Source: a virus
Length of the DNA: 64,000 nucleotides
Reading direction: 5' to 3' (one strand)
IMG/VR virus record: IMGVR_UViG_3300009370_001603
Span: 58,519 to 122,518 of that record
Made by a program: the position numbers and the translations under genes. The stretch's first letter is position 1. Every line of letters starts with the position of its first letter. The notes below the pieces were generated by a model. That model was not told where the DNA came from. It searched no databases and saw only the letters and a list, made by a program, of their open reading frames with translations. Of the stretch, positions 53,883 to 63,863 are shown in pieces.

Positions 53883-54701
53883 TTAATCCTTCACTGTGTC
53901 CGGTGTTAGGAAGGGCTGATCTACCATTTCGTCTTGAAACTTATGAAACTCACTGAGTCTTTTCTTTTCTTTATCCATAGCCATCCTCATCTTTTCCATC
54001 TCAACCCCATAGGATTTTGTTACATCTGGGTTTGACACAAGATATGCCATCCAGCCAGAGAAACTAGTCTTGCTATCTTCAAATCTTTTAACTCTCTGCT
54101 CTCTTGTTGCTTTCATCTCTTTGAGCATCGAGTTCTTCTTGGTTTGTAGCTCTCTATAGTCTTTATTCAATGATTCCTGTGAGGCCTTCAGTGAGGCTAC
54201 CTGTCGCTCCATGTTAAATATATGGTCTAGGTCATGATCTGGCTCTAATGCTCTCTCGGTAGCGATCAGGGTGTCTAGGGCGGATATCTGCTCTATATTA
54301 TCTTTATTATGTTTAAGAGATCTGTTCATGAGTAGTTCTAGCTTAATTAAATCTACAACTTGAAGTTCTTCTGTAGGTATGACATCATCTTTGAACTGAG
54401 AAATAATCCTCGCCCAGTGGTATTGGAATAATTTTAGCTCATCTTCTGTAAATTGTTGCTTTAGCTCCACCCAATATGGCCTAAACTCTAAATCAAAGCG
54501 AGCTTTTTCTTCATCAGTTATATCACTAAGCCATACTGGGGATTTCATTTCGCCCTTGGCTATTTTTTTCTTTATGAAACCGAGAACACTGTCTGGATCT
54601 CGGTCTAGCTCGGTTGATATTTGATCTAAACCGAAATCAATGCTCTCTTTTATGAATTTCTCTTCTTCTTTAGAGATTCTGCCCTTCTTCATGGTATCCA
54701 T
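53883..54701 (-). CDS. Probable small terminase/DNA-binding protein
   Basis: This 272-residue protein starts with a compact helix-turn-helix pattern (GRISKEEEKFIKESIDFGLD, then ISTELDRDPDSVLGFIKKK) like the DNA-recognition domain of small terminases. A long coiled coil follows (ASLKASQESLNKDYRELQTK, then MKATREQRVKRFED), which could form the ring. It overlaps the end of the sigma-like gene. Terminase pairs are usually near terL; here they are about 4 kb apart, so the call is tentative. Confidence 0.55.
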   Translation of the reverse strand: MDTMKKGRISKEEEKFIKESIDFGLDQISTELDRDPDSVLGFIKKKIAKGEMKSPVWLSDITDEEKARFDLEFRPYWVELKQQFTEDELKLFQYHWARIISQFKDDVIPTEELQVVDLIKLELLMNRSLKHNKDNIEQISALDTLIATERALEPDHDLDHIFNMERQVASLKASQESLNKDYRELQTKKNSMLKEMKATREQRVKRFEDSKTSFSGWMAYLVSNPDVTKSYGVEMEKMRMAMDKEKKRLSEFHKFQDEMVDQPFLTPDTVKD

Positions 54702-55194
54702 GCTCCTCTAAAATCTCTGTAATCATATCGATAATCTCTTCTCTACGTTGTTTTGTCACATAAACATCATTAATTATCTTTAAGTAGTCCATTCGTACTT
54801 GGGCAGGAAGGTATTTATTAACTAAATCAACAATATTTTTATTGTCTATGTCATTATATGAGATAGAGTACTTCTTTTTGCTGTCAATTATTGTGCCCTC
54901 ATAGTCTAGCTGCGCTGGTTGCAAGACTTTCACCCTATCTTCATCAGATCCACTAACAAAATGATTGTCTCTAACGAAGTTTTTGAGTCTATTAGATAAA
55001 TTTACACTGAGGAAGTTTTCAAGAGGGCGATCTTCATCATATCTATGTAGGGCTTCCATACAAATAATAAAGGATTCTTGTTTTATATCATCAATAGTAT
55101 ATCCATAGAAGGTATATCTGGGTGAAATTCTATTGCAGACTAGTGTAATTGTGTCTACAACCTCTTGTTCGGTCATTCCTTTTGGTATATGCAT
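54670..55194 (-). CDS. Sigma-70-like late transcription factor
   Basis: The best start is the ATG at 55192-55194 (MHIPKGMTEQEVVDTI), which follows the upstream stop with one base between and has GGAG eight bases before it. A longer frame to 55236 lies wholly inside the upstream gene. Residues about 20-85 (RYTFYGYTIDDIKQESFIIC, ALHRYDEDRPLENFLSVNL, RLKNFVRDNH) are a sigma region 2: the DDIKQE helix and the P-x-x-x-F-L-x(4)-R-L-x-N segment. The 174 residues lack region 4, as in the T4 gp55 late factor. It is the natural candidate to read the GTGTATAA motifs. Confidence 0.8.
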   Translation of the reverse strand: MHIPKGMTEQEVVDTITLVCNRISPRYTFYGYTIDDIKQESFIICMEALHRYDEDRPLENFLSVNLSNRLKNFVRDNHFVSGSDEDRVKVLQPAQLDYEGTIIDSKKKYSISYNDIDNKNIVDLVNKYLPAQVRMDYLKIINDVYVTKQRREEIIDMITEILEEHGYHEEGQNL

Positions 55195-55195
55195 G

Positions 55196-55981
55196 TTAGT
55201 TCTCCGTTTTAATCGTCTTCCATTTTGATCCATCAAAGAATTCTAGAGAATTTGTAGATGAATTGAAAATAATAGAGCCTTTTTCTCGGTTTCTCGGTTT
55301 ACTGGGGCGAGATTTCAAGACAACGTGTCCTGTCAGGAGCTTAGATTTATCATTAAGCATTTCAAAGTGCTTTGTAGCAACTAAAATAGGGTCATTATTA
55401 TCTTTTAAAGAGTTAACAACATAATCTGGAGTAAGAATAAAGGATAGATCTTTAGAATCTATGGATTTTATCTCTCCATCAAGCCTACCCAATAGGGAAT
55501 TTTCTGATATTTCTACGGGAGAGGGCGTTAAAGGCTCTGTACTACAGATAACAGAGTGTTCTTTGTAGTATAATTCTATATAATTAGCTGGTATGTATGA
55601 ACCAACGATTAAATAAGTATCGTCTGGGAAATCTAGAGAGCCATCTTCTAAGGTAACAAGATCATCGTCTCCTTGTTGTAATGCTTCTAAAATAACGTCT
55701 CGTACAAGAAAAAAATCCTCTTTATCTCTTTCAACGTGGGCTAAACCCCTTTCAACGTGAATTACTTTCCTAGAGTTTACATCGGTGCTATCACAATTCT
55801 CTATAGTATAGAAAAATTCTACGTCAGGGTTGATTACCTGTCTTAGGCTATGCTCTTCTTGTATGTATCTAGCAAAACGGCTACCAGTATGATCGAGATC
55901 ATCTATATGTAACAGATGTACGCGGCCTTCTTTGACCACGGCTGGGCTTACTGCGAAGTTTTTATTCCGTATCTTGCGCAT
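55196..55981 (-). CDS. Fibre-like structural protein of the sigma operon
   Basis: A 261-residue protein whose final 25 residues (GSIIFNSSTNSLEFFDGSKW) match the GxIxFNSxTxxLExFDGxxW end domain used by many phage fibres. The N-terminal 100 residues are beta/alpha with RVHLLHIDDLDHTG and are not recognised. It is the second gene after the small Cys-containing protein and just upstream of the sigma-like gene. A virion role is inferred from the C-terminal motif. Confidence 0.65.
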   Translation of the reverse strand: MRKIRNKNFAVSPAVVKEGRVHLLHIDDLDHTGSRFARYIQEEHSLRQVINPDVEFFYTIENCDSTDVNSRKVIHVERGLAHVERDKEDFFLVRDVILEALQQGDDDLVTLEDGSLDFPDDTYLIVGSYIPANYIELYYKEHSVICSTEPLTPSPVEISENSLLGRLDGEIKSIDSKDLSFILTPDYVVNSLKDNNDPILVATKHFEMLNDKSKLLTGHVVLKSRPSKPRNREKGSIIFNSSTNSLEFFDGSKWKTIKTEN

Positions 55982-56700: not shown

Positions 56701-56760
56701 CGCTGCCCGAGTCGCCGTAAGTACTTACTATCAAACGACTTACAACTATTTAGAGAAAAA
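56701..56760 (+). repeat. Promoter-upstream repeat R1
   Basis: GCTGCCC, then CGTAAGT and ACTTAC arms around a 13-16 base centre, then TTTAGAGAAAAA. One of six copies of a roughly 60-base element found 24-34 bases before a -35 box. The most diverged 5' end of the set. Confidence 0.75.
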
Positions 56761-56784
56761 TTCTATTTTATTTAAAGAATAAGC

Positions 56785-56813
56785 TTGACAAGTGCCGATA
56801 ACTATAGTATAAT
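56785..56813 (+). promoter_or_regulatory. Early promoter P1
   Basis: TTGACA, 17-base spacer with GCCGATAA, TATAAT. Drives the 37-residue membrane gene. Preceded at 24 bases by repeat R1. Confidence 0.85.
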
Positions 56814-56855
56814 AAGAACATAACAAGTTAAGTAATTCACACAAGGAAAAAACAA

Positions 56856-56969
56856 ATGAGCGAAAGAATGATTGAGACAATTAAAGTAACATTGATTATC
56901 GGTTCTGGTATCATCGGCATTATTACGACGGCAATCGCTTGTTCATGGCTATTATTATCACAAATATAA
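56856..56969 (+). CDS. Tiny membrane protein, 37 residues
   Basis: The first early gene. MSERMIETIK is followed by one hydrophobic span rich in Gly/Ile (LIIGSGIIGIITTAIACSWL). It lies about 36 bases after the predicted start site of the first early promoter and has ACAAGGAAAAAAC before the ATG. A single-span phage protein of this size may act on the host membrane; the exact role is unknown. Confidence 0.6.
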   Translation: MSERMIETIKVTLIIGSGIIGIITTAIACSWLLLSQI

Positions 56970-57002
56970 TCACATTTATTTAATAATAATTAAAGATTAC
57001 CC

Positions 57003-57031
57003 TTGACAAATGACGATAATAATAGTATAAT
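57003..57031 (+). promoter_or_regulatory. Early promoter P2
   Basis: TTGACA-17-TATAAT with ACGATAA in the spacer and AATTAAAGATTA upstream. The next ATG is at +1, giving a leaderless message. Confidence 0.85.
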
Positions 57032-57037
57032 AAGAAC

Positions 57038-57286
57038 ATGAAAAACAACAACAACAACAACGATAAGGCAAACCAAATGAATCAACCTAATGGCTATAAA
57101 TTCCGAGTATACAAGTTCAATAAAAACACTTACGACGCTTTTGCTACTTTTGTGACGCTTCAAGATGCGGTATCGTATATGAGGCGATGGAATCCTAATC
57201 AGATGCATAACTGGTACATCCTAGACGAAGACACTAGCCGAAGATTTGAAATGAATCCTACTGGTGATGCACTCCGGCTAGTCTAA
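57038..57286 (+). CDS. Early protein, 82 residues, possibly leaderless
   Basis: The ATG at 57038 is 7 bases after the last base of the -10 box, so it coincides with the predicted transcription start and no ribosome site precedes it. Read this way the protein begins with an Asn-rich stretch (MKNNNNNNDK). An alternative ATG at 57077 (MNQPNGYKFRVYKFNKN) has a weak AAGG upstream and gives 69 residues. The core looks folded (FRVYKFNKNTYDAFATFVTL, then MRRWNPNQMHNWYILD). Family unknown. Confidence 0.65.
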   Translation: MKNNNNNNDKANQMNQPNGYKFRVYKFNKNTYDAFATFVTLQDAVSYMRRWNPNQMHNWYILDEDTSRRFEMNPTGDALRLV

Positions 57287-57316
57287 AAAAAACTTGAGAA
57301 AATCCCCGTTTAGGGC

Positions 57317-57345
57317 TTGACAACACCGACAATTTATGGTATAAT
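57317..57345 (+). promoter_or_regulatory. Early promoter P3
   Basis: TTGACA-17-TATAAT with TGG before the -10 (extended -10). Drives the 81-residue gene. Confidence 0.85.
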
Positions 57346-57382
57346 TAGGATATAAGAAATTAACACAACACAAAGGAAAATT

Positions 57383-57628
57383 ATGAGAGTTTCAGATTTA
57401 CAACCAGCGGCTTACCCGCAATCACCTTCAGTAGAGAATCCTAATTGTGATTCTCACCGATTGTTTACTAACGAGTTCAACAAAGCCAGCTTTATCGAAG
57501 CTAATGGCGACGTTGAAGTTGTTTGGAACGAACAGTATAAATACTGGGCGGTTCCCGCTTTCGCTGAACAGCGTAAGCGTTATAGTGACCTGAAACAGGC
57601 GTACTGTGACCAGTACGGTTGTGAATAG
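57383..57628 (+). CDS. Early protein, 81 residues
   Basis: AAAGGAAAATT precedes the ATG and a perfect early promoter lies just upstream. The product has SVENPNCDSHRLFTNEFNKA, IEANGDVEVVWNEQYKYWAV and a charged end (QRKRYSDLKQAYCDQYGCE). It is soluble and of unknown function. A structured RNA element follows its stop. Confidence 0.65.
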   Translation: MRVSDLQPAAYPQSPSVENPNCDSHRLFTNEFNKASFIEANGDVEVVWNEQYKYWAVPAFAEQRKRYSDLKQAYCDQYGCE

Positions 57629-57694
57629 GGTTTAACCCGCAAGCCTTGCCCTAGTCGCAAGCATAGCCAGCTGTGAGGCTATTCAAGATACCAG
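57629..57694 (+). ncRNA. Structured RNA element, copy A
   Basis: After the 81-residue gene: a GGGTT/ACCC hairpin, GCAAG/CTTGC and a final stem ATAGCC/GGCTAT. Shares about 40 bases with copy B at 60209, where the last stem is ATAGTT/AACTAT, so pairing is kept by paired changes. Confidence 0.55.
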
Positions 57695-57721
57695 CATTTT
57701 TATTTTAACAAAGGAAAGATA

Positions 57722-58069
57722 ATGAGAAAAGCACACAATCCACGAATCACATGTAAAGACGGTTTCACTATGTCAGTACAGGCACGAGATAGCGCATACT
57801 GTACGCCAAGAGAAGATTATCCCGATACGCCATACACTAAAGTAGAATGTGGCTATCCGTCATCTACACCCAAAACAGATGGGCTAAGAGCTTACGCAGA
57901 GCTGTTCGGTACTCAGGATTACACTGAAACCGTTTACGGATACGTGCCGGTTGAGATAGTACAGGCAGAGCTTGACGCACATGGTGGTATAGTTGAAGGG
58001 TGTATGCCGTCCAACGAACCAACCAAGGAAGTACTTGCCGACATCTACTTCAATGATTACTCTGAGTGA
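57722..58069 (+). CDS. Conserved small phage protein of the GYVPVEIV type
   Basis: A 115-residue protein: NPRITCKDGFTMSVQA near the start, YCTPRED, a VECGYPSS segment and TVYGYVPVEIVQAELDAHGG. I recognise this pattern from a widespread family of small phage/prophage proteins with no assigned function, but cannot cite a family name. No own promoter is evident between it and the preceding gene, so it is probably on the same transcript. AAAGGAAAGATA precedes the ATG. Confidence 0.75.
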   Translation: MRKAHNPRITCKDGFTMSVQARDSAYCTPREDYPDTPYTKVECGYPSSTPKTDGLRAYAELFGTQDYTETVYGYVPVEIVQAELDAHGGIVEGCMPSNEPTKEVLADIYFNDYSE

Positions 58070-58130
58070 GCCTGTCTTAACTAACCCAGACAGCTAAGGG
58101 GCGCAGGGTGCCTGTACACAGGTAGGCCGA

Positions 58131-58192
58131 GGCGCTGCCCCGCGCGACGTAAGTCCTTTGGTAGTAACGACTTACGACGATTCAGAGAAAAA
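58131..58192 (+). repeat. Promoter-upstream repeat R2
   Basis: GGCGCTGCCCCG, CGTAAGTC, loop, GACTTACG, then AGAGAAAAA. Perfect 8-base inverted arms. Lies 34 bases before the -35 of P4. Confidence 0.8.
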
Positions 58193-58226
58193 CCTTCTTT
58201 TTATCTTTTTTTATTAATGTTTGGGG

Positions 58227-58255
58227 TTGATTTATGCCGATATATATTATATAAG
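58227..58255 (+). promoter_or_regulatory. Early promoter P4
   Basis: TTGATT-17-TATAAG with GCCGATAT in the spacer. Weaker boxes. 34 bases after repeat R2. Drives the 28-residue membrane gene. Confidence 0.65.
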
Positions 58256-58281
58256 AGTTAATCACAACAAAGGAGATAAGT

Positions 58282-58368
58282 ATGATATATTTACTAACGG
58301 CGGCTTGCATTATCGGCATTATTGGGGCTGATACTTTTAATAAATTTATTCTAAAAAATCTAGAATAG
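58282..58368 (+). CDS. Tiny membrane protein, 28 residues
   Basis: AAAGGAGATAAGT precedes ATG 58282. The product is one hydrophobic span (IYLLTAACIIGIIGADTF) and a short basic tail (NKFILKNLE). The CIIGIIGA core echoes the GIIGIITTA of the first early gene, hinting at a related mini-protein. Promoter box TTGATT/TATAAG lies upstream. Confidence 0.55.
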   Translation: MIYLLTAACIIGIIGADTFNKFILKNLE

Positions 58369-58371
58369 GGG

Positions 58372-58400
58372 TTGACAAACCTAACTTTTTATGGTATAAT
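58372..58400 (+). promoter_or_regulatory. Early promoter P5
   Basis: TTGACA-17-TATAAT with TTTTTATGG before the -10. Its ATG is at +1: leaderless 53-residue gene. Confidence 0.85.
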
Positions 58401-58406
58401 ACAATT

Positions 58407-58568
58407 ATGAAAAACACAACAAACAAAGTCTTTAAGCTAATCATAACCGGAAAGCTATCGCCAAATAGCAAGGCTTACAAAAAAACGATAGCGAACTCGC
58501 AAGGTATGCTGACCGGCAAGCCCGACATATATACAACAGTAACCAAGCTGGTCGACAAAAAAACTTAA
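58407..58568 (+). CDS. Leaderless early basic protein, 53 residues
   Basis: The ATG starts exactly 7 bases after the -10 box of its promoter and no ribosome site can exist before it; no in-frame ATG near the start offers an alternative. The product MKNTTNKVFKLIITGKLSPN is basic, with SKAYKKTIAN in the middle. Function unknown. Confidence 0.6.
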   Translation: MKNTTNKVFKLIITGKLSPNSKAYKKTIANSQGMLTGKPDIYTTVTKLVDKKT

Positions 58569-58587
58569 AAAAATCCCAAAATAGGGC

Positions 58588-58616
58588 TTGACAAAACTAA
58601 GTTTTTATGGTATAAT
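58588..58616 (+). promoter_or_regulatory. Early promoter P6
   Basis: TTGACA-17-TATAAT with TTTTTATGG before the -10. It leads into a 300-base stretch without a substantial gene (tandem repeats); the first ATG after its ribosome site reads only three codons (MNN then stop). Confidence 0.85.
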
Positions 58617-58692
58617 GTAAACATAACGAAAGGGAAATACAATCCAATGAACAACTAAAACGGTGGCCCTGCTGGGCGATAGAGTCAAAAAC

Positions 58693-58814
58693 CGTGACAC
58701 GAAGAACTGATGCCGAACAGTATAACACCGACACGAGAAGTCTAACTGCGTAAACAATGACACGAGAAGCCGAACTGCGTTAACAACGGCACTTGAAGCC
58801 TAACAAGTAAACAA
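58693..58814 (+). repeat. Tandem 28-29-base repeats
   Basis: Units of the form GACACGAGAAGYCNAACTG then CGTAAACAA occur at 58729-58757 and 58758-58786, with diverged copies before and after. Each unit contains a TAA and an ATG or similar start, so it is not a coding repeat. Confidence 0.7.
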
Positions 58815-58854
58815 TGGCGGGGCAAAAAACTTTGGAAAAAACTAAAGATTCCAC

Positions 58855-58882
58855 TTGACAACGCCGATAATTACTATATAAT
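58855..58882 (+). promoter_or_regulatory. Early promoter P7
   Basis: TTGACA-16-TATAAT with GCCGATAA in the spacer. Drives the acidic 94-residue gene and its two coupled partners. Confidence 0.85.
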
Positions 58883-58919
58883 AAGAGTATTACAAGCAAC
58901 ACTTTTGAAAGGTTTTACT

Positions 58920-59204
58920 ATGAGCGAATTCAGCAAATTTGACACCCAAATCCACATCGAAGAAACCAACGAATATCAGCCAACGGCGGCTGATTTGGCA
59001 GAGCTTAACGAATGGCTCGATGAGATGGAAGGCGATATGCCTTTCCCAGAGGAAGAAGAATTCCAACTGTCTGCCCCCGAAGGATGGGACGCTATCGAGG
59101 GAGATGATTCGCTTGGCGAATTGTCAACGTTCGACGGTATTGAAATTGATTACGAGCCGGAAGACAGTTTTTATGATTACGCCGATTTAATGGAGAATTT
59201 TTAA
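58920..59204 (+). CDS. Very acidic early protein, 94 residues
   Basis: ATG at 58920 has GAAAGG upstream; a TTG at 58905 in the same frame overlaps that site and is rejected. About a third of the residues are Asp or Glu (ELNEWLDEMEGDMPFPEEEE, then GDDSLGELSTFDGIEIDYEP), with few basic residues. Small, very acidic early phage proteins can mimic DNA, as T7 Ocr does; here that is only a possibility. It is followed by two genes joined by stop-start overlaps. Confidence 0.7.
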   Translation: MSEFSKFDTQIHIEETNEYQPTAADLAELNEWLDEMEGDMPFPEEEEFQLSAPEGWDAIEGDDSLGELSTFDGIEIDYEPEDSFYDYADLMENF

Positions 59205-59299
59205 TGGTAGATTTTGAAATGTGGAATTGGATTATTGGCGTTTCCATTACGGTAACGATTTTATCTTGCCTTTATCTGGATTGGGATTTGTCTCGATGA
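59204..59299 (+). CDS. Tiny membrane protein, 31 residues
   Basis: Its ATG overlaps the preceding TAA (TAATG) and its TGA overlaps the next ATG. One span, WIIGVSITVTILSCLYLDWD, is flanked by acidic residues. Translational coupling to the acidic protein suggests that the two work together. Function unknown. Confidence 0.55.
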   Translation: MVDFEMWNWIIGVSITVTILSCLYLDWDLSR

Positions 59300-59442
59300 G
59301 CGATGAGCACTACCAACAACCCGAAGACGATGGAGCTTTGTTGTTTTGGATGCACTGCGAAGAGCTTGCCAACCAACCGGAGCAAACGGAAGAACCTGAC
59401 CCCGATGAGCCAATTGGATTCGACGACCCGCCACCCTTTTAG
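59296..59442 (+). CDS. Acidic Pro-rich early protein, 48 residues
   Basis: Starts at the ATGA overlap with the mini membrane gene (MSDEHYQQPEDDGALLFWMH) and ends QTEEPDPDEPIGFDDPPPF. The frame extends upstream without an ATG, so the coupled start is preferred. The third member of a coupled acidic-membrane-acidic set. Nine bases after the stop begins repeat R3. Confidence 0.55.
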   Translation: MSDEHYQQPEDDGALLFWMHCEELANQPEQTEEPDPDEPIGFDDPPPF

Positions 59443-59450
59443 GGGGTCGC

Positions 59451-59511
59451 GGGGCTGCCCCGCAGGCCGTAAGTCCTTTGACAGCAACGACTTATGACTA
59501 TTTAGAGAAAA
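59451..59511 (+). repeat. Promoter-upstream repeat R3
   Basis: GGGGCTGCCCCGCAGG, CGTAAGTC / GACTTATG arms (one change that would be a G-U pair in RNA), TTTAGAGAAAA. 25 bases before P8. Confidence 0.8.
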
Positions 59512-59536
59512 CTTTCTAAAAATTCCTAAATTACTC

Positions 59537-59565
59537 TTGACAGGCTAAAGATATTGTGGTATAAT
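59537..59565 (+). promoter_or_regulatory. Early promoter P8
   Basis: TTGACA-17-TATAAT with TGTGG before the -10. 25 bases after R3. Drives the 44-residue gene. Confidence 0.85.
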
Positions 59566-59594
59566 GTCGATATAAGTAATAAGGAAACAAAGTT

Positions 59595-59729
59595 ATGACA
59601 ATTCAAAGACTAATGACAATTTTAAGCTATGGACAAATCCCGGCAAAACCTGCTAACATTACCGCAGTACGCTGGAATGCCATGATTAAAATGGCTAAAA
59701 AAACTTTGGAAAAAGTTGAGAATAATTAA
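59595..59729 (+). CDS. Small basic early protein, 44 residues
   Basis: AAGGAAACAAAGTT precedes the ATG. The product MTIQRLMTILSYGQIPAKPA ends in a basic helix (IKMAKKTLEKVENN). It is driven by a TTGACA/TATAAT promoter with an extended -10 (TGG). Function unknown. Confidence 0.55.
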   Translation: MTIQRLMTILSYGQIPAKPANITAVRWNAMIKMAKKTLEKVENN

Positions 59730-59738
59730 AGATTAGGC

Positions 59739-59767
59739 TTGACAAATGCCGATAAATATAGTATACT
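59739..59767 (+). promoter_or_regulatory. Early promoter P9
   Basis: TTGACA-17-TATACT with GCCGATAA in the spacer. Drives the 102-residue gene. Confidence 0.8.
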
Positions 59768-59805
59768 TAAGACATAAGAAGTTAACACAACACAAAGGAA
59801 AGAAA

Positions 59806-60114
59806 ATGAAAACTACCGAAACAAACATCTTGAACGTAACATACGACACCGCCGACGGGTTGCACCGCATCTTGATTGACAAGCTGGTTGAGTACGACTA
59901 TAATGGCGATATGGCAGTAGCCAAAAAAATGTGTACTGTTATCACTCCCGATAACGTTCCAATGATATTCAACGTGTCGCCATACACACCGTTGAGCGAT
60001 ATGCATACTATGGTTAAGGTATGGATTGATTGCGGTTGCCCAATGGATTGCGACAAATATGGAATTGCCCGCAAGTGGGATAAAATAAGTCTTCACAAGT
60101 GGGTAGCGGGATAA
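59806..60114 (+). CDS. Early protein, 102 residues
   Basis: AAAGGAAAGAAA precedes the ATG at 59806; the frame is open further upstream through the promoter but that part cannot be translated from it. The product includes YDTADGLHRILIDKLVEYDY, VPMIFNVSPYTPLSDMHTMV and a C-G-C-P-M-D-C cluster that could bind metal. Family unknown. Confidence 0.65.
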   Translation: MKTTETNILNVTYDTADGLHRILIDKLVEYDYNGDMAVAKKMCTVITPDNVPMIFNVSPYTPLSDMHTMVKVWIDCGCPMDCDKYGIARKWDKISLHKWVAG

Positions 60115-60208
60115 CACGAAGGGAACTGGAACTCACCCGCCCGTCTTGAGGCGTAGAATATCAAGCTAGTGAGTTAGGGTTAAGAGCCACTGCATCCCAC
60201 GGCTACAA

Positions 60209-60273
60209 AGGGTTGAAACCCGCAAGTCTTGCCCAAGTCGCAAGCATAGTTTACGGAACTATTCAAAACCGTT
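60209..60273 (+). ncRNA. Structured RNA element, copy B
   Basis: GGGTTGAAACCC hairpin, GCAAG/CTTGC, then ATAGTT/AACTAT. The two-pair change relative to copy A supports a real RNA stem. Located in the 60115-60511 gap before R4. Confidence 0.55.
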
Positions 60274-60353
60274 TTCATACAACGGGTGGGAGTGTCTTTC
60301 CTTATCCAAACGGATAAAGACGAGATGACATAGCCAGCCAGCGAAACCGACGC

Positions 60354-60414
60354 GGCGCTGCCCCGCAGGCCGTAAGTCCTTTGGTGGCAACGAGTTACGG
60401 CGATTTATAAAAAA
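60354..60414 (+). repeat. Promoter-upstream repeat R4
   Basis: GGCGCTGCCCCGCAGG, CCGTAAGTC / GAGTTACGG arms (one mismatch, one extra pair), then TTTATAAAAAA. 25 bases before P10. Confidence 0.8.
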
Positions 60415-60439
60415 CTTTATCTTTTTTTGAAAAAAGTAG

Positions 60440-60489
60440 TTGACAATGACCTAACGTGTCACACCTATGGGCGATAATATATATATAAG
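60440..60489 (+). promoter_or_regulatory. Disrupted early promoter P10
   Basis: TTGACA at 60440 is followed by 38 bases before TATAAG at 60484. Removing 21 bases between two ATG triplets restores TTGACA-17-TATAAG with GGCGATAA. It is 25 bases after R4 and upstream of the 35-residue gene. Probably weak or inactive as it stands. Confidence 0.5.
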
Positions 60490-60511
60490 AAGTTAACACG
60501 AAAGGAAAGTT

Positions 60512-60619
60512 ATGTTTGGTTTATCAGATGAGTTTATGATGTTTGTTGTTGTCCCGGCACTACTGTTGCCGGTTGGTTGGGTTGTCACAAAAATATTAAA
60601 AATTTATGATAATAATTAA
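60512..60619 (+). CDS. Tiny membrane protein, 35 residues
   Basis: GAAAGGAAAGTT precedes ATG 60512. One hydrophobic span (MMFVVVPALLLPVGWVV) precedes a short basic tail (TKILKIYDNN). Its promoter (P10) has a 21-base insertion in the spacer, see findings. Confidence 0.55.
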   Translation: MFGLSDEFMMFVVVPALLLPVGWVVTKILKIYDNN

Positions 60620-60628
60620 AGTTTGGGC

Positions 60629-60657
60629 TTGACAACAGCCGATAAATAGTATATAAT
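60629..60657 (+). promoter_or_regulatory. Early promoter P11
   Basis: TTGACA-17-TATAAT with GCCGATAA in the spacer and AATTAAAGTTTG upstream. Drives the 62- and 69-residue genes. Confidence 0.85.
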
Positions 60658-60682
60658 AAGCACATAACACGAAAGGAAAATT

Positions 60683-60871
60683 ATGAGTTATTACCCGAAA
60701 GAAATCGCAAGTAAAATGAAAAAAGGTTTAGAAAATGAATTACAGCAAATCTGTGAAATCGGTAAGGTTTTACGTGAAGATGGAAATTCGAGAATCGAAG
60801 TAAACTACTACATGAACGTAGATGAGGATTTTATCTCTGACGTTCTTGGTTGTTACAATTATAAAGGTTGA
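60683..60871 (+). CDS. Early protein, 62 residues
   Basis: GAAAGGAAAATT precedes the ATG. The product (SKMKKGLENELQQICEIGKV, then IEVNYYMNVDEDFISDVLGC) is helical then beta and of unknown function. It is followed after four bases by the next gene, so both share one message. Confidence 0.65.
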   Translation: MSYYPKEIASKMKKGLENELQQICEIGKVLREDGNSRIEVNYYMNVDEDFISDVLGCYNYKG

Positions 60872-60875
60872 GAAA

Positions 60876-61085
60876 ATGAGAGAATTTGAAATTGAAGCCG
60901 CAAAGCGAAGACTCACCGGCATGGTATTGGTTCGATTCCGTGAAGGGTTGCGTTATCACGTTGGTATATCGGACATTGTGACACTGGCAAACAATCGGGT
61001 GCGAGTCGCTACCAAGAGATGCCACCAGAGAGAAATTGTGTCGATTACCAGCGACCCAGAAATATATGCAAAAAAAGTAAAATAG
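60876..61085 (+). CDS. Early basic beta-rich protein, 69 residues
   Basis: ATG 60876 with AAAGGTTGAGAAA upstream; the in-frame upstream region lies inside the previous gene. The product (GMVLVRFREGLRYHVGISDI, then NNRVRVATKRCHQREIVSIT) looks like a small SH3/OB-like barrel. This may be a nucleic-acid-binding fold, but no family is recognised. Confidence 0.6.
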   Translation: MREFEIEAAKRRLTGMVLVRFREGLRYHVGISDIVTLANNRVRVATKRCHQREIVSITSDPEIYAKKVK

Positions 61086-61088
61086 GGC

Positions 61089-61117
61089 TTGACAAGTACC
61101 AATTATTATGGTACAAT
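61089..61117 (+). promoter_or_regulatory. Early promoter P12
   Basis: TTGACA-17-TACAAT with TATGG before the -10. Drives the 131-residue gene and the following coupled set. Confidence 0.8.
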
Positions 61118-61154
61118 TAAGACATACAACACAACAACTTTGAAAGGTTAAATT

Positions 61155-61550
61155 ATGAAAACTGTTGAACAAATGCTCGCTGAACTTGAAGTCGCCGTGA
61201 ATGAGTGCATCGTCATTCCTAACGAATGGTTGCCGGAAGGATACCACGACCAAACACGGGGCGGTCGCACGCTCGCAAGGTTAAATGAAATGTGCGACGA
61301 AAAACAGGACGAAGAATCCGAACACCAAAAGGTAAAAGCGTTGAAGGCTCGCAATATCGAAAAGCTACAAAAGCAAGTAGAAGAAAAATCCTTATTTGCT
61401 TCTCACGGCGATTTTGTTGACCTTGATAGCGAACTTGATTACAGCGACAATGAAGCCGACGAAATCCAACTACATAAAAATATGATGGCGTTGGTTGGCG
61501 GTATGGTAAACAGTGGCATGATTGATGCGGAAGATTTGGAGGAAGAATAA
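61155..61550 (+). CDS. Early protein, 131 residues
   Basis: GAAAGGTTAAATT precedes the ATG. The product has an N-terminal helix MKTVEQMLAELEVAVNECIV, a VIPNEWLPEGYHDQTRGGRT-like loop, and a charged helical, acidic C-terminus (SELDYSDNEADEIQLHKN). It shares its stop with the next start (TAATG). Unknown function. Confidence 0.65.
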   Translation: MKTVEQMLAELEVAVNECIVIPNEWLPEGYHDQTRGGRTLARLNEMCDEKQDEESEHQKVKALKARNIEKLQKQVEEKSLFASHGDFVDLDSELDYSDNEADEIQLHKNMMALVGGMVNSGMIDAEDLEEE

Positions 61551-61816
61551 TGTTTTCAGAAAAAGATTACGATTACGGCGATGGTCTTCTGCACAGGTGG
61601 GGAATTTGCCTAGTACGGCAAAGCACGGGTAGTGTACTCAATATGGGTTTGCCCCGCGTGTTGAATGAAATGTTAAACTTGGTTACGTTCAACGATTTGC
61701 CTACAGAAGATGTTTTTGAAGCTATTGCTAAATGGGCAAATGTCGATTTTCCATCGTGGGAACCGGCGGGACTAATGCCCCAATATCAGAATGATGGGAG
61801 TAACGCAAATGGATAA
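61550..61816 (+). CDS. Early protein, 88 residues
   Basis: Coupled to the preceding gene by TAATG. The product (DYGDGLLHRWGICLVRQSTG, then LPTEDVFEAIAKWANVDFPS) is aromatic-rich and soluble. It overlaps the next mini membrane gene by 8 bases. Function unknown. Confidence 0.6.
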   Translation: MFSEKDYDYGDGLLHRWGICLVRQSTGSVLNMGLPRVLNEMLNLVTFNDLPTEDVFEAIAKWANVDFPSWEPAGLMPQYQNDGSNANG

Positions 61817-61910
61817 GTTTGATATTTTAATGTATGCCGTATGTATTGGAACAATTGTAGCCAGTGCTGTATTTGGAACATGGGCGTTATTTATGACAAT
61901 GAGTTTATAG
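61809..61910 (+). CDS. Tiny membrane protein, 33 residues
   Basis: ATG at 61809 inside the end of the previous gene. One span, MYAVCIGTIVASAVFGTWAL, with a Met-rich end. Unknown role. Coupling with the upstream gene suggests joint expression. Confidence 0.5.
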   Translation: MDKFDILMYAVCIGTIVASAVFGTWALFMTMSL

Positions 61911-61916
61911 GGGTTT

Positions 61917-62009
61917 ATGATGAATAGCAAAGAACAAAGACGAAACATTTATATTTGCCTAGCGGCAATGATTGCCGGTTTTATTTTGCAAGGGATACTT
62001 GTTCCATGA
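61917..62009 (+). CDS. Tiny membrane protein, 30 residues
   Basis: Starts 6 bases after the previous stop (MMNSKEQRRNIYICLAAMIA) and has one span ending ILQGILVP; basic residues precede the span, predicting an N-in orientation. Its stop overlaps the next ATG (ATGA). Either of the two adjacent Met codons could start. Confidence 0.5.
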   Translation: MMNSKEQRRNIYICLAAMIAGFILQGILVP

Positions 62010-62176
62010 TGAGAAAACAACACGCGATAGAAATCGCACGTTATTACCAACGACTAGAAAATATTGAAAAAAGGAAAAAAGAAGATGAGAGACAGAGACA
62101 GACTAAAGTCAATTTTATTCTTCGCGGTTTCCGCCGCTTGGGTTTCTTTCGCCGTAACGATAATGAGCCACTATAG
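62006..62176 (+). CDS. Basic early protein, 56 residues
   Basis: Starts at ATGA over the previous stop (MMRKQHAIEIARYYQRLENI) and ends FRRLGFFRRNDNEPL, very basic. A second frame (62085-62183) overlaps most of it. The operon chain of stop-start overlaps supports this frame. Function unknown. Confidence 0.5.
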   Translation: MMRKQHAIEIARYYQRLENIEKRKKEDERQRQTKVNFILRGFRRLGFFRRNDNEPL

Positions 62177-62183
62177 CAGGTAA
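62085..62183 (+). CDS. Overlapping-frame mini membrane protein, 32 residues
   Basis: ATG 62085 with AAGGAAAAAAGAAG just upstream, in another frame within the 56-residue gene. The product has a basic start (MRDRDRLKS) and a clean span (ILFFAVSAAWVSFAVTIM). The good ribosome site and membrane helix suggest a real overlapping gene, in the style of nested spanin pairs, but without a lipobox. Uncertain. Confidence 0.4.
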   Translation: MRDRDRLKSILFFAVSAAWVSFAVTIMSHYSR

Positions 62184-62187
62184 AAAC

Positions 62188-62248
62188 GGGGCTGCCCGCC
62201 GCGACGTAAACCCTTACAGTTAAAGCACTTACGACTATTTTGAGAAAA
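62188..62248 (+). repeat. Promoter-upstream repeat R5
   Basis: GGGGCTGCCC, CGTAAA / ACTTACG arms (diverged), TTTTGAGAAAA. 25 bases before P13. Confidence 0.75.
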
Positions 62249-62273
62249 TTTCAGAAAAGTTAAAGTTTACCCC

Positions 62274-62301
62274 TTGATTTTGACGATAATAATAGTATAA
62301 T
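62274..62301 (+). promoter_or_regulatory. Promoter P13 of a structured RNA
   Basis: TTGATT-16-TATAAT with ACGATAA in the spacer. 25 bases after R5. The +1 base (62308) is the first base of a 10-bp closing stem; no gene follows before P14. Confidence 0.75.
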
Positions 62302-62307
62302 GAGAGA

Positions 62308-62394
62308 GTAAGATAGGCACGCAGTTAGCCAAGCAATAAGTCCCCTCTGGTGCAAGGGCTGTCAGTCAAGCAGTAAGTCGGCGCCCTGTCTTAC
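62308..62394 (+). ncRNA. Promoter-driven self-closing small RNA
   Basis: The predicted +1 of P13 is base 62308, the first base of GTAAGATAGG, which pairs with CCTGTCTTAC ending at 62394 (10 pairs, one G-U). The interior has a CCC/GGG hairpin and an imperfect direct repeat (AGCAATAAGTC / AGCAGTAAGTC). No open frame. The size (87 bases) and closed ends suggest a stable non-coding RNA; it lacks tRNA arms. Confidence 0.6.
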
Positions 62395-62469
62395 CTAATA
62401 CAAGCAAGTTAAGCGAATATAGCACAGCCAGCCAGCAAAAAAAATCGAAAATAAATTAAAGTTTACCCC

Positions 62470-62497
62470 TTGACAATGCCGATATATAAGGTATAAT
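62470..62497 (+). promoter_or_regulatory. Early promoter P14
   Basis: TTGACA-16-TATAAT with GCCGATAT in the spacer. The ATG of the 49-residue gene is at +1: leaderless. Confidence 0.85.
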
Positions 62498-62503
62498 GAG
62501 AAC

Positions 62504-62653
62504 ATGACAGAACAACGATTTACAAGCATGGCACAACAAAGACGATTTGAGGCACAACACAATGAAATCCAAAAAGCAAGAGAAGCCAAAGCAAAGAATT
62601 TGGATGCCCAAGACGAGGGCAGTAACGATGGAGGATCGTCGGACGAAGCGTAA
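62504..62653 (+). CDS. Leaderless early protein, 49 residues
   Basis: The ATG is 7 bases after the -10 box, thus at the predicted start site, with no ribosome site. The product MTEQRFTSMAQQRRFEAQHN is a charged helix, ending in an acidic Gly/Ser tail (DEGSNDGGSSDEA). A second frame at 62562 overlaps it. Function unknown. Confidence 0.5.
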   Translation: MTEQRFTSMAQQRRFEAQHNEIQKAREAKAKNLDAQDEGSNDGGSSDEA

Positions 62654-62699
62654 GCGTACACGCCAAGCACAGCGTAGTGCGTGGCAAAATTCTATTTAA
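62562..62699 (+). CDS. Overlapping-frame basic protein, 45 residues
   Basis: An ATG at 62562 opens a 45-codon frame inside and beyond the preceding gene; the product is strongly basic (MKSKKQEKPKQRIWMPKTRA, then RRTKRKRTRQAQRSAWQ). No clear ribosome site precedes it, so translation is doubtful. Basicity and Trp content are unlike random sequence. Alternative: a by-chance open frame. Confidence 0.3.
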   Translation: MKSKKQEKPKQRIWMPKTRAVTMEDRRTKRKRTRQAQRSAWQNSI

Positions 62700-62714
62700 G
62701 CGAAAGGTAATGCA

Positions 62715-62867
62715 ATGAGCGTTAAATTTATCAAAGACAAAGAAACTAAAACTAAAATCCGCTACACAGCAACCGGCGATGTGTCTGGGTCAATTTATAT
62801 TGACAAGGAAAGCGAACTTGCAAAAGAATCCGAAATTATTTTGGAAATTCCTCAAGTTACCGCTTGA
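62715..62867 (+). CDS. Early protein, 50 residues
   Basis: GAAAGGTAATGCA precedes the ATG. The product (VKFIKDKETKTKIRYTATGD, then SGSIYIDKESELAKES) is a beta-hairpin-like small protein. Its TGA is embedded in the -35 TTGACA of the next promoter, showing how compact the region is. Function unknown. Confidence 0.6.
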   Translation: MSVKFIKDKETKTKIRYTATGDVSGSIYIDKESELAKESEIILEIPQVTA

Positions 62868-62891
62868 CATTGCCGATAAATATAGTATAAT
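62864..62891 (+). promoter_or_regulatory. Early promoter P15
   Basis: TTGACA-16-TATAAT with GCCGATAA in the spacer. The -35 overlaps the stop of the 50-residue gene. It drives the 66-residue gene through a long structured leader. Confidence 0.85.
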
Positions 62892-62897
62892 GGTAGT

Positions 62898-62977
62898 ATA
62901 ACACGAAAAGGCATCTGGAGCAACGTGCTAGGGTTAAGAGCCACTGCTTGCCGCACACATTTTTGAAAGGTTTTGAT
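62898..62977 (+). ncRNA. Structured 5' leader of the 66-residue gene
   Basis: About 80 bases between P15 and its ATG, far longer than other leaders here. Contains TAGGGTTAAGAGCCACTGC, identical to 60175-60193, within GTGC/GCAC and GGC/GCC pairings. May regulate translation; unproven. Confidence 0.4.
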
Positions 62978-63178
62978 ATGAAAATCAAACAAACAGTTGA
63001 TACCAAGTATGATAATTTGTACATTGGTTGGAACAATCTTCAGTTCACCGACATTGCCGGTAACGAGGTCAAAATTGATGTCACCGACAATCAAATTTTG
63101 GAAATAGCCGAAATCATTAACACAAAGCGTGATTCGATTTTGGAAGAACGAGCAGAAAAGGAAATCGAAGTTGAGTAA
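62978..63178 (+). CDS. Early protein, 66 residues
   Basis: GAAAGGTTTTGAT precedes ATG 62978, and an unusually long (about 80-base) leader lies before it. The product (MKIKQTVDTKYDNLYIGWNN, then EIAEIINTKRDSILEERAEK) is alpha/beta with an acidic C-terminus. It overlaps the TTG start of the next gene. Confidence 0.65.
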   Translation: MKIKQTVDTKYDNLYIGWNNLQFTDIAGNEVKIDVTDNQILEIAEIINTKRDSILEERAEKEIEVE

Positions 63179-63347
63179 TGCACAAAAGCCGCTTGTAGGA
63201 ATCGGCACAATTTTTCCTGCTGGAAAGGTCGTCGCCATAAAGAACGACCACGTATTGTTAGAGACTCCCAACGAGGGTGTCAAGAGTTTTACTTTTTCTC
63301 AAGTCGAAAGGTTTATCAATGTTGAACGAACTTTATCACAAGCGTAA
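63171..63347 (+). CDS. Early beta-barrel-like protein, 58 residues, TTG start
   Basis: The only suitable start is TTG at 63171, 8 bases after AAAAGGAA, overlapping the previous gene by 8 bases; no ATG lies nearby in frame. The product (GTIFPAGKVVAIKNDHVLLE, then GVKSFTFSQVERFI) resembles a small SH3/KOW-like barrel. It is followed, with an overlap, by a gene ending in a similar VKSF...FSL pattern. Function unknown. Confidence 0.55.
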   Translation: MSNAQKPLVGIGTIFPAGKVVAIKNDHVLLETPNEGVKSFTFSQVERFINVERTLSQA

Positions 63348-63522
63348 CGAACGCAAAGTTAATTTCCTTTACCCAGTAAACGGAAGCAAGAACGTCTTGC
63401 GAAATGTTGACGGGGTTAAGGTCAAGAGTTTCACCGGCCCAAGTGGTCGTGGAATCACCGTCAAAGAGAGCAATGGCTTACACAAGTCATTCTCACTGAC
63501 CAAGTGCGTGGCTTCACTCTAA
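63319..63522 (+). CDS. Early basic beta protein, 67 residues
   Basis: GAAAGGTTTATCA precedes ATG 63319, which overlaps the previous gene by 29 bases. The product (KVNFLYPVNGSKNVLRNVDG, then GRGITVKESNGLHKSFSLTK) is basic and beta-rich. VKVKSF and the final SFSL repeat the VKSFTFSQV of the neighbour, so they could be diverged copies. Function unknown. Confidence 0.6.
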   Translation: MLNELYHKRNERKVNFLYPVNGSKNVLRNVDGVKVKSFTGPSGRGITVKESNGLHKSFSLTKCVASL

Positions 63523-63543
63523 ACTAAGCCAACCTTTCGTGTT

Positions 63544-63646
63544 GTGTGAGAGGTTGGGGACTAGCTCGCAATCAAGTGAACTTAGTCCATAGCTCAGAGG
63601 TTGCCGCTATAAGCAGGCTTTGGACTGTCCCCCACTCTCTCTACAC
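63544..63646 (+). ncRNA. Structured 3' region with alternative pairings
   Basis: GTGTGAGAG-x-GGGGAC pairs at a distance with GTCCCC-x-CTCTC-x-ACAC. Inside, TAGTCCA can pair with either GGACTA upstream or TGGACT downstream, and ATAGC/GCTAT forms a hairpin. The exclusive pairings resemble a switch or stable 3' end before a terminator. Function unknown. Confidence 0.45.
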
Positions 63647-63665
63647 GAATTGAATACAAAATACG

Positions 63666-63730
63666 ACCCACGCTCGGGGCCTTTCGGTTATGCCGTTTTA
63701 TCAATCGCAGCGTGTGGTTGTTTTTTTTAT
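63666..63730 (+). terminator. Intrinsic terminator ending the early transcript
   Basis: ACC-CACGCT pairs with AGCGTG-T-GGT around an inner loop, followed by TTGTTTTTTTT. It closes the block transcribed from P15 before R6/P17 begins the next. Confidence 0.75.
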
Positions 63731-63748
63731 TTTAGGGGTTGACAAATC

Positions 63749-63811
63749 GGGGCTGCCCCGCAGGTCATAAGTCCTTTGTTTCTGGTGGTTTACGTCAATT
63801 TAGAAAAAAAA
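63749..63811 (+). repeat. Promoter-upstream repeat R6
   Basis: GGGGCTGCCCCGCAGG, CATAAGTC / GGTTTACG arms (weaker pairing), TTTAGAAAAAAA. 24 bases before P17. Confidence 0.75.
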
Positions 63812-63835
63812 CCAGAAAAAGTTAAAGTTACCCCA

Positions 63836-63863
63836 TTGACTTTGACGATATATATAGTATAAT
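63836..63863 (+). promoter_or_regulatory. Early promoter P17
   Basis: TTGACT-16-TATAAT with ACGATAT in the spacer. 24 bases after R6. Drives the gene at the right edge. A lone TTGACA at 63739 (P16) has no -10 and was not counted. Confidence 0.75.

What the first reader, a model, noticed from the sequence alone, without database searches (positions are those of the whole stretch)
56701..63811. Sixty-base inverted-repeat element at a fixed distance before six early promoters
Six copies (56701, 58131, 59451, 60354, 62188, 63749) share GGGGCTGCCCC, CGTAAGTC/GACTTACG arms and AGAGAAAA. The gap to the -35 box is 24-25 bases in five and 34 in one. Fixed spacing suggests an operator or enhancer. Compensating or G-U changes in the arms also allow an RNA role, such as processing of the previous transcript. 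It is not an intrinsic terminator (no T run).
Basis: seen in the sequence. Interest (0 to 1): 0.8.

Follow-up and report, generated by a model that had tools for sequence, protein, structure and literature searches.

The report
Helix-phased operator before early phage promoters
Before the lead promoters of its early genes this uncultured bacterial virus carries six copies of a 29-base palindrome; many related viruses carry the same site, placed in whole turns of the DNA helix from the promoter, which points to a landing site for an unidentified gene-control protein and not to an RNA structure.

Summary
The six copies are real and are the only ones in the 122.5-kb phage contig. The conserved part is a 29-bp imperfect palindrome, CGTAAGTCSTT-N7-AASGACTTACG, just downstream of a short GC-rich block. 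Related phages (found by terminase, not by the motif) have the same site in their early region, often as two palindromes 52-53 bp apart around a GC-rich linker. From palindrome centre to -35 box the distances peak at 44, 54, 64 and 74 bp (period 10.3-10.4 bp; redundancy-filtered n=76, R=0.60): rotational phasing of a DNA-bound protein relative to RNA polymerase. An RNA role for the palindrome is contradicted: the arms pair and covary less than in 498-500 of 500 shuffles. A recombination site is unlikely (no tyrosine recombinase in 36 contigs). Close relatives lacking the palindrome have GC-rich, terminator-like hairpins in the same place, so the GC block is probably the end of the previous operon. 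Best reading: an operator for an unidentified dimeric regulator that contacts RNA polymerase from the same helix face (class-I-like). Its sign is not shown; I favour stimulation. The binding protein was not found. No match was found among 50,697 cultured-phage records.

The parts
56701..56744 (+). copy 1: GC block (CGCTGCCCGAG) and 29-bp palindrome 56716-56744
56785..56813 (+). promoter of copy 1, TTGACA-17-TATAAT, -35 start 55 bp from palindrome centre
58131..58176 (+). copy 2: GC block and palindrome 58148-58176
58227..58255 (+). promoter-like site of copy 2, TTGATT-17-TATAAG, 65 bp from centre (one helical turn more than the others)
59449..59496 (+). copy 3: GC block GCGGGGCTGCCCCGC and palindrome 59468-59496; starts just after the stop codon of the upstream ORF (59442)
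59537..59565 (+). promoter of copy 3, TTGACA-17-TATAAT, 55 bp from centre
60352..60399 (+). copy 4: GC block and palindrome 60371-60399
60440..60483 (+). ambiguous promoter of copy 4: TTGACA 60440 (55 bp) without a -10, or GTGTCA 60456 with TATATA 60478, inside a TGACCTAACGTGTCA motif seen also in L014 and L020
   Evidence: read; relatives
62188..62233 (+). copy 5: GC block and palindrome 62205-62233 (weak-half state CGTAAACCC)
62274..62301 (+). promoter of copy 5, TTGATT-16-TATAAT, 55 bp from centre
63749..63794 (+). copy 6: GC block GGGGCTGCCCC and palindrome 63766-63794 (most degenerate right arm); preceded by an intrinsic-terminator-like site 63702-63720
63836..63863 (+). promoter of copy 6, TTGACT-16-TATAAT, 56 bp from centre

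Best explanation
The 29-bp palindrome is a double-stranded DNA operator: two 11-bp half-sites, 7 bp apart, for a dimeric sequence-specific protein. It sits about -80, -90, -100 or -110 from the expected start site, on one constant face of the helix relative to the polymerase at the first promoter of each early gene block. Bound there, the protein most likely contacts RNA polymerase (for example its alpha C-terminal domain) and sets the output of the operon-lead promoters. I favour stimulation, because many equally strong internal early promoters lack the site and would escape a shut-off. The GC-rich block next to it is most likely the (sometimes degenerated) end of the previous operon, so the element is a compact boundary: upstream stop, operator, promoter. 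Shown by sequence statistics: the site, its spread, the fixed 7-bp spacer, the helical phasing, the failure of RNA pairing, and the position of terminator-like hairpins in relatives. Inferred: a protein, its dimeric state, contact with polymerase, the sign, and the boundary role. The protein is unidentified.
For: Terminase-selected relatives carry the site in the early region. In 12 other element-bearing contigs and in this one, sites cluster mainly in one early region of roughly 10-25 kb (two contigs wrap their ends); four terminase relatives have none. The spacer is always 7. Distances centre to -35 peak at 44/54/64/74: Rayleigh best period 10.3-10.4, n=154; same phase in single, 53-bp and 52-bp classes separately; n=76, R=0.60 after redundancy filtering, above all 3,000 uniform simulations; n=109, R=0.69 when promoters are found by their spacer motif and -10, not by -35. 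In G021 seven of eight elements have a promoter at 54 or 63-64. Half-state AC/AC is absent from the viral list shown (20 expected) while GT/AC is 201 (145 expected): each site keeps one strong half. Pair measures lie below nearly all shuffles. The GC block is confined to about 20 bp, flanks normal.
Against: No binding protein found: no protein family is common to the element-bearing contigs and absent from the others, and Pfam/PHROGs scans of two relatives show no obvious regulator among the families listed. Element promoters are near consensus, -35 slightly better than internal ones, so they need no activator. The 50-bp, 58-bp and 42-bp classes (G009, G003, G013) do not show the same promoter phase. 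Copy 4 is ambiguous. No expression data. Sequences are related, so p-values are optimistic even after filtering.
Confidence: 0.66

Rival explanations
1. Roadblock insulator: the protein bound to the palindrome, with or without the GC hairpin, stops polymerase arriving from the upstream operon, as a stoperator does; the promoter next to it is a bystander.
For: Elements mark block boundaries, two start within a few bases of an upstream stop codon. Relatives lacking the palindrome have terminator-like GC hairpins there; G013 elements enclose GACCCC-tetraloop-GGGGTC hairpins. Intrinsic terminators are not above chance in the window early region.
Against: Does not explain helical phasing to the downstream promoter. 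Linkers are not more self-complementary than shuffles overall.
Confidence: 0.25
2. Operator of a repressor that shuts early lead promoters off later in infection, through the same helix-face contact or DNA looping.
For: Element promoters are near consensus. The phi29 p4 protein activates one promoter and represses another through the same residues (title of Monsalve 1996, cited in PMC11476376).
Against: Many strong internal promoters in the same blocks lack the element and would escape.
Confidence: 0.25
3. RNA element: the arms form a hairpin in the 3' end of the previous transcript (processing or stability).
For: Arms are complementary; copy 3 folds better than shuffles (z -2.4).
Against: Percent paired and covariation lie below 498-500 of 500 shuffles; position 9 is a mismatch in most sites; five of six copies fold like shuffles; no Rfam match.
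Confidence: 0.04
4. Core site of a tyrosine recombinase (11-7-11 geometry) that shuffles early gene cassettes.
For: Geometry; variable 7-bp centre; about 20 chromosomal pattern matches lie 0-24 bp from a tRNA 3' end, two with an integrase gene within about 200 bp.
Against: No PF00589 in this contig or 35 others, mostly element-bearing; sites within one element have different centres; promoter phasing unexplained.
Confidence: 0.04

Closest known systems
Class I activator sites (CRP-type) and Fis sites upstream of rRNA promoters (own knowledge)
   Same: Dimer site upstream of a sigma-70 promoter, allowed only at whole-turn distances from the promoter
   Different: Other sequence, 29-bp 11-7-11 palindrome, centred about -80 to -110, often doubled around a GC-rich linker, repeated at 6-16 places of one early region; protein unknown
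phi29 protein p4 sites (PMC11476376)
   Same: Phage regulator bound upstream of polymerase and contacting it
   Different: phi29 has four p4 sites at one early/late control region; here one or two sites at each early lead promoter; no p4 relative was looked for
Mycobacteriophage L5 stoperators (PMC9283540)
   Same: Many copies of one repressor site spread over a phage genome, placed in intergenic gaps
   Different: Stoperators are 13-bp asymmetric sites for a monomer; here 29-bp palindromes only in the early region and phased to promoters
T4-type early-promoter stem-loop cassettes (PeSL; own knowledge, paper not held)
   Same: Stem-loop joined to an early promoter, repeated in hypervariable early regions
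   Different: Here the palindrome is a DNA site without RNA covariation; only the GC block resembles a terminator

Membership tests
Helix-phased upstream operator (class-I-like) | Sequence-specific, palindromic, conserved site | tested here: met
Helix-phased upstream operator (class-I-like) | Distances to promoter differ by whole helical turns | tested here: met
   not met for the 50-bp class
Helix-phased upstream operator (class-I-like) | Known protein binding it and contacting RNA polymerase | not testable with these tools
   no candidate found
Structured RNA element | Compensatory changes in the stem | tested here: not met
Structured RNA element | Folds better than shuffled sequence | tested here: not met
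   one of six copies only
Intrinsic terminator (window copies) | GC stem followed by a T run | tested here: not met
   met in some relatives
Tyrosine-recombinase core site | Recombinase encoded by the element-bearing phages | tested here: not met
Stoperator | 13-bp asymmetric site bound by a monomeric repressor | tested here: not met
   site is a 29-bp palindrome; feature from PMC9283540
PeSL cassette of T4-type phages | Carried by T4-type phages | not tested
   only terminase was compared with isolates; best match 25.5% identity, not a T4-type phage

The most novel reading that the evidence does not exclude
A previously undescribed boundary element of a large group of uncultured phages: one or two 29-bp operators, five helical turns apart, flank the terminator core of one early operon and are rotationally locked to the promoter of the next, so that one bound protein both ends the upstream transcript and drives the downstream promoter.
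Probability: 0.25. Interest if true: 0.75.

Novelty: new variant of a known kind. Interest (0 to 1): 0.62.

Why it matters
It would be a shared regulatory code of a widespread but uncultured phage lineage, with a clear prediction (whole-turn spacing works, half-turn spacing fails) that can be tested in a reporter without culturing the phage. It also defines a strong bait (29 bp, two half-sites) for finding the missing regulator, and shows how early operons of a phage family are bounded and controlled in two different ways (operator versus hairpin) at the same position.

Tried and rejected
RNA hairpin and a known RNA family: rejected. Tyrosine-recombinase or cassette site: geometry fits, but no PF00589 in 36 contigs. 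Conserved GC hairpin: GC-richness of the linker is conserved, self-complementarity is not above dinucleotide shuffles, although one subgroup (G013) does have a clear hairpin. Host regulon: a scan of one genome per bacterial and archaeal species gave 77 stretches, mostly single sites that look like terminators (many beside tRNA genes) or phage contigs in MAGs; the one multi-copy chromosome carries it inside a dispersed repeat. Regulator search by gene content: adjacent sigma-like and HTH/coiled-coil proteins are equally conserved in relatives without the site; a 77-aa HTH family occurs in only 15 loci; no family separates element-bearing from element-free contigs. Weaker -35 boxes as a sign of activator dependence: not seen. 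Literature searches for the sequence and for such an element found nothing relevant. The first exact pattern was too strict.

Full report
What is there. The window is the last 64 kb of a 122.5-kb IMG/VR phage contig. On the minus strand lie terminase, portal, capsid and other structural genes; from about 56.7 kb to the end there is a plus-strand early region of short ORFs with many near-consensus promoters. All six share GCTGCCC, then a 29-bp imperfect palindrome, then an A-rich stretch. Centre of palindrome to -35 is 55, 65, 55, 55 or 71, 55, 56 bp. In copy 2 the extra ten bases are one clean insertion.

Spread. A terminase search, which does not use the motif, brought 80 relatives. Seventeen of those that reach the early region carry the palindrome at the score used, with a spacer of 7 although 4-11 were allowed. 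Whole-contig reads show 5-26 sites per contig, clustered mainly in one early region, in 13 element-bearing contigs, and none in four relatives, one of them 167 kb long with 83% identical terminase. The nine contigs compared first share terminase and portal families. A blastn search of 50,697 cultured-phage records with a consensus element found nothing (the query is short), and the best isolate terminase match is 25.5% identical.

Architecture. Many relatives have two palindromes, most often 52-53 bp apart, around a linker of 77% GC; other groups use 50, 58 or 41-42 bp. The GC block is local, with normal composition outside it. Its self-complementarity is not above dinucleotide shuffles. Relatives without the palindrome have GC-rich hairpins with A and T flanks at the same place, some with a T run, and the G013 type encloses GACCCC-tetraloop-GGGGTC. 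I infer that the GC block is the terminator, or its remnant, of the previous operon.

Helical phasing. Pooling all sites, centre to -35 distances peak at 44, 54, 64 and 74 bp. Rayleigh statistics give a best period of 10.3-10.4 bp (n=154, R=0.52). Single sites and the 53- and 52-bp classes show the same phase independently. After keeping one of any group at least 70% alike in the promoter-proximal 70 nt, the signal rises with promoter quality (R 0.32, 0.46, 0.60 for at least 9, 10, 11 of 12 matches). Promoters found by spacer motif and -10 alone give R=0.69, n=109. In relative G021 seven of eight elements have a promoter at 54 or 63-64 bp. The 50-bp class does not share this phase, and no element in G003 has a recognisable sigma-70 promoter, so the phasing claim is limited to the window's own branch and its nearer relatives.

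DNA, not RNA. Half-sites occur in two main states, CGTAAGTC and CGTAAACC. If arms paired in RNA, AC should be matched by AC; instead AC/AC is missing from the viral list shown (20 expected) and GT/AC is in excess (201 against 145). In a 90-sequence alignment pairing and covariation lie below 498-500 of 500 shuffles. Five of six window copies fold no better than shuffles. This is what a dimer site with at least one strong half would show.

Mechanism. The simplest account is a dimeric regulator bound on one helix face, contacting polymerase at the next promoter, as class I activators do (established knowledge), or as phi29 p4, which can activate or repress (PMC11476376). The sign is not shown. 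Element promoters are as strong as internal ones, which does not favour dependence on an activator; but internal promoters in the same blocks lack the site, which does not favour shut-off either. I lean to stimulation, with an insulating role of the GC block. No regulator was found: no family is common to the element-bearing contigs and absent from the others. A host factor, a virion protein or a fast-evolving phage protein all remain open; the scan of 84,980 species genomes shows no regulon of such sites.

Verdict. The function itself remains inferred, and the binding protein is the missing piece.

Noticed in passing
window 56785-63863: Early promoters share a spacer motif (TTGACA..TGCCGATA....TATAAT) in many copies, with or without the palindrome; it may be a second regulatory contact.
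   Followed up: partly
window 54673-55236 (-) and relatives: Sigma-70 region 2-like phage protein next to the early region; relatives G021 and G002 each have two such proteins.
   Followed up: partly
L287:11732-12214, L287:12936-13730, L287:14584-15471: Early genes of relative G021 match mycobacteriophage L5 gp82, GP88 and DUF932 families.
   Followed up: no
window 60440-60490: Copy 4 precedes a different promoter containing TGACCTAACGTGTCA, seen also before element promoters in L014 and L020; possibly a second operator.
   Followed up: partly
L214, L217, L218, L222, L223, L224, L244, L250, L269, L276 and others: About 20 of the 77 chromosomal pattern matches lie 0-24 bp from the 3' end of a tRNA gene, in different phyla; two (L214, L225) are within about 200 bp of an integrase gene. 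Many look like tRNA terminators, some lack a T run.
   Followed up: partly
L213, L253, L263, L268, L275, L278: A Verrucomicrobiae chromosome carries CGTAAGTCGTTGATTACCAACGACTTACG or close variants about seven times inside a dispersed repeat.
   Followed up: partly
window 63733-63745; L020, L097, L118, L182, L215: GGGGTTGACAAA, the usual -35 context, lies directly upstream of the element without a -10, as if elements had been joined at promoter sequences.
   Followed up: partly
window 58724-58810: Three tandem copies of a 29-bp repeat between two early promoters.
   Followed up: no
L153:6937-7167 and 14 other loci: A 77-aa helix-turn-helix protein with an RGRPKK tail recurs near the arrays in a subset of element-bearing phages.
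   Followed up: partly
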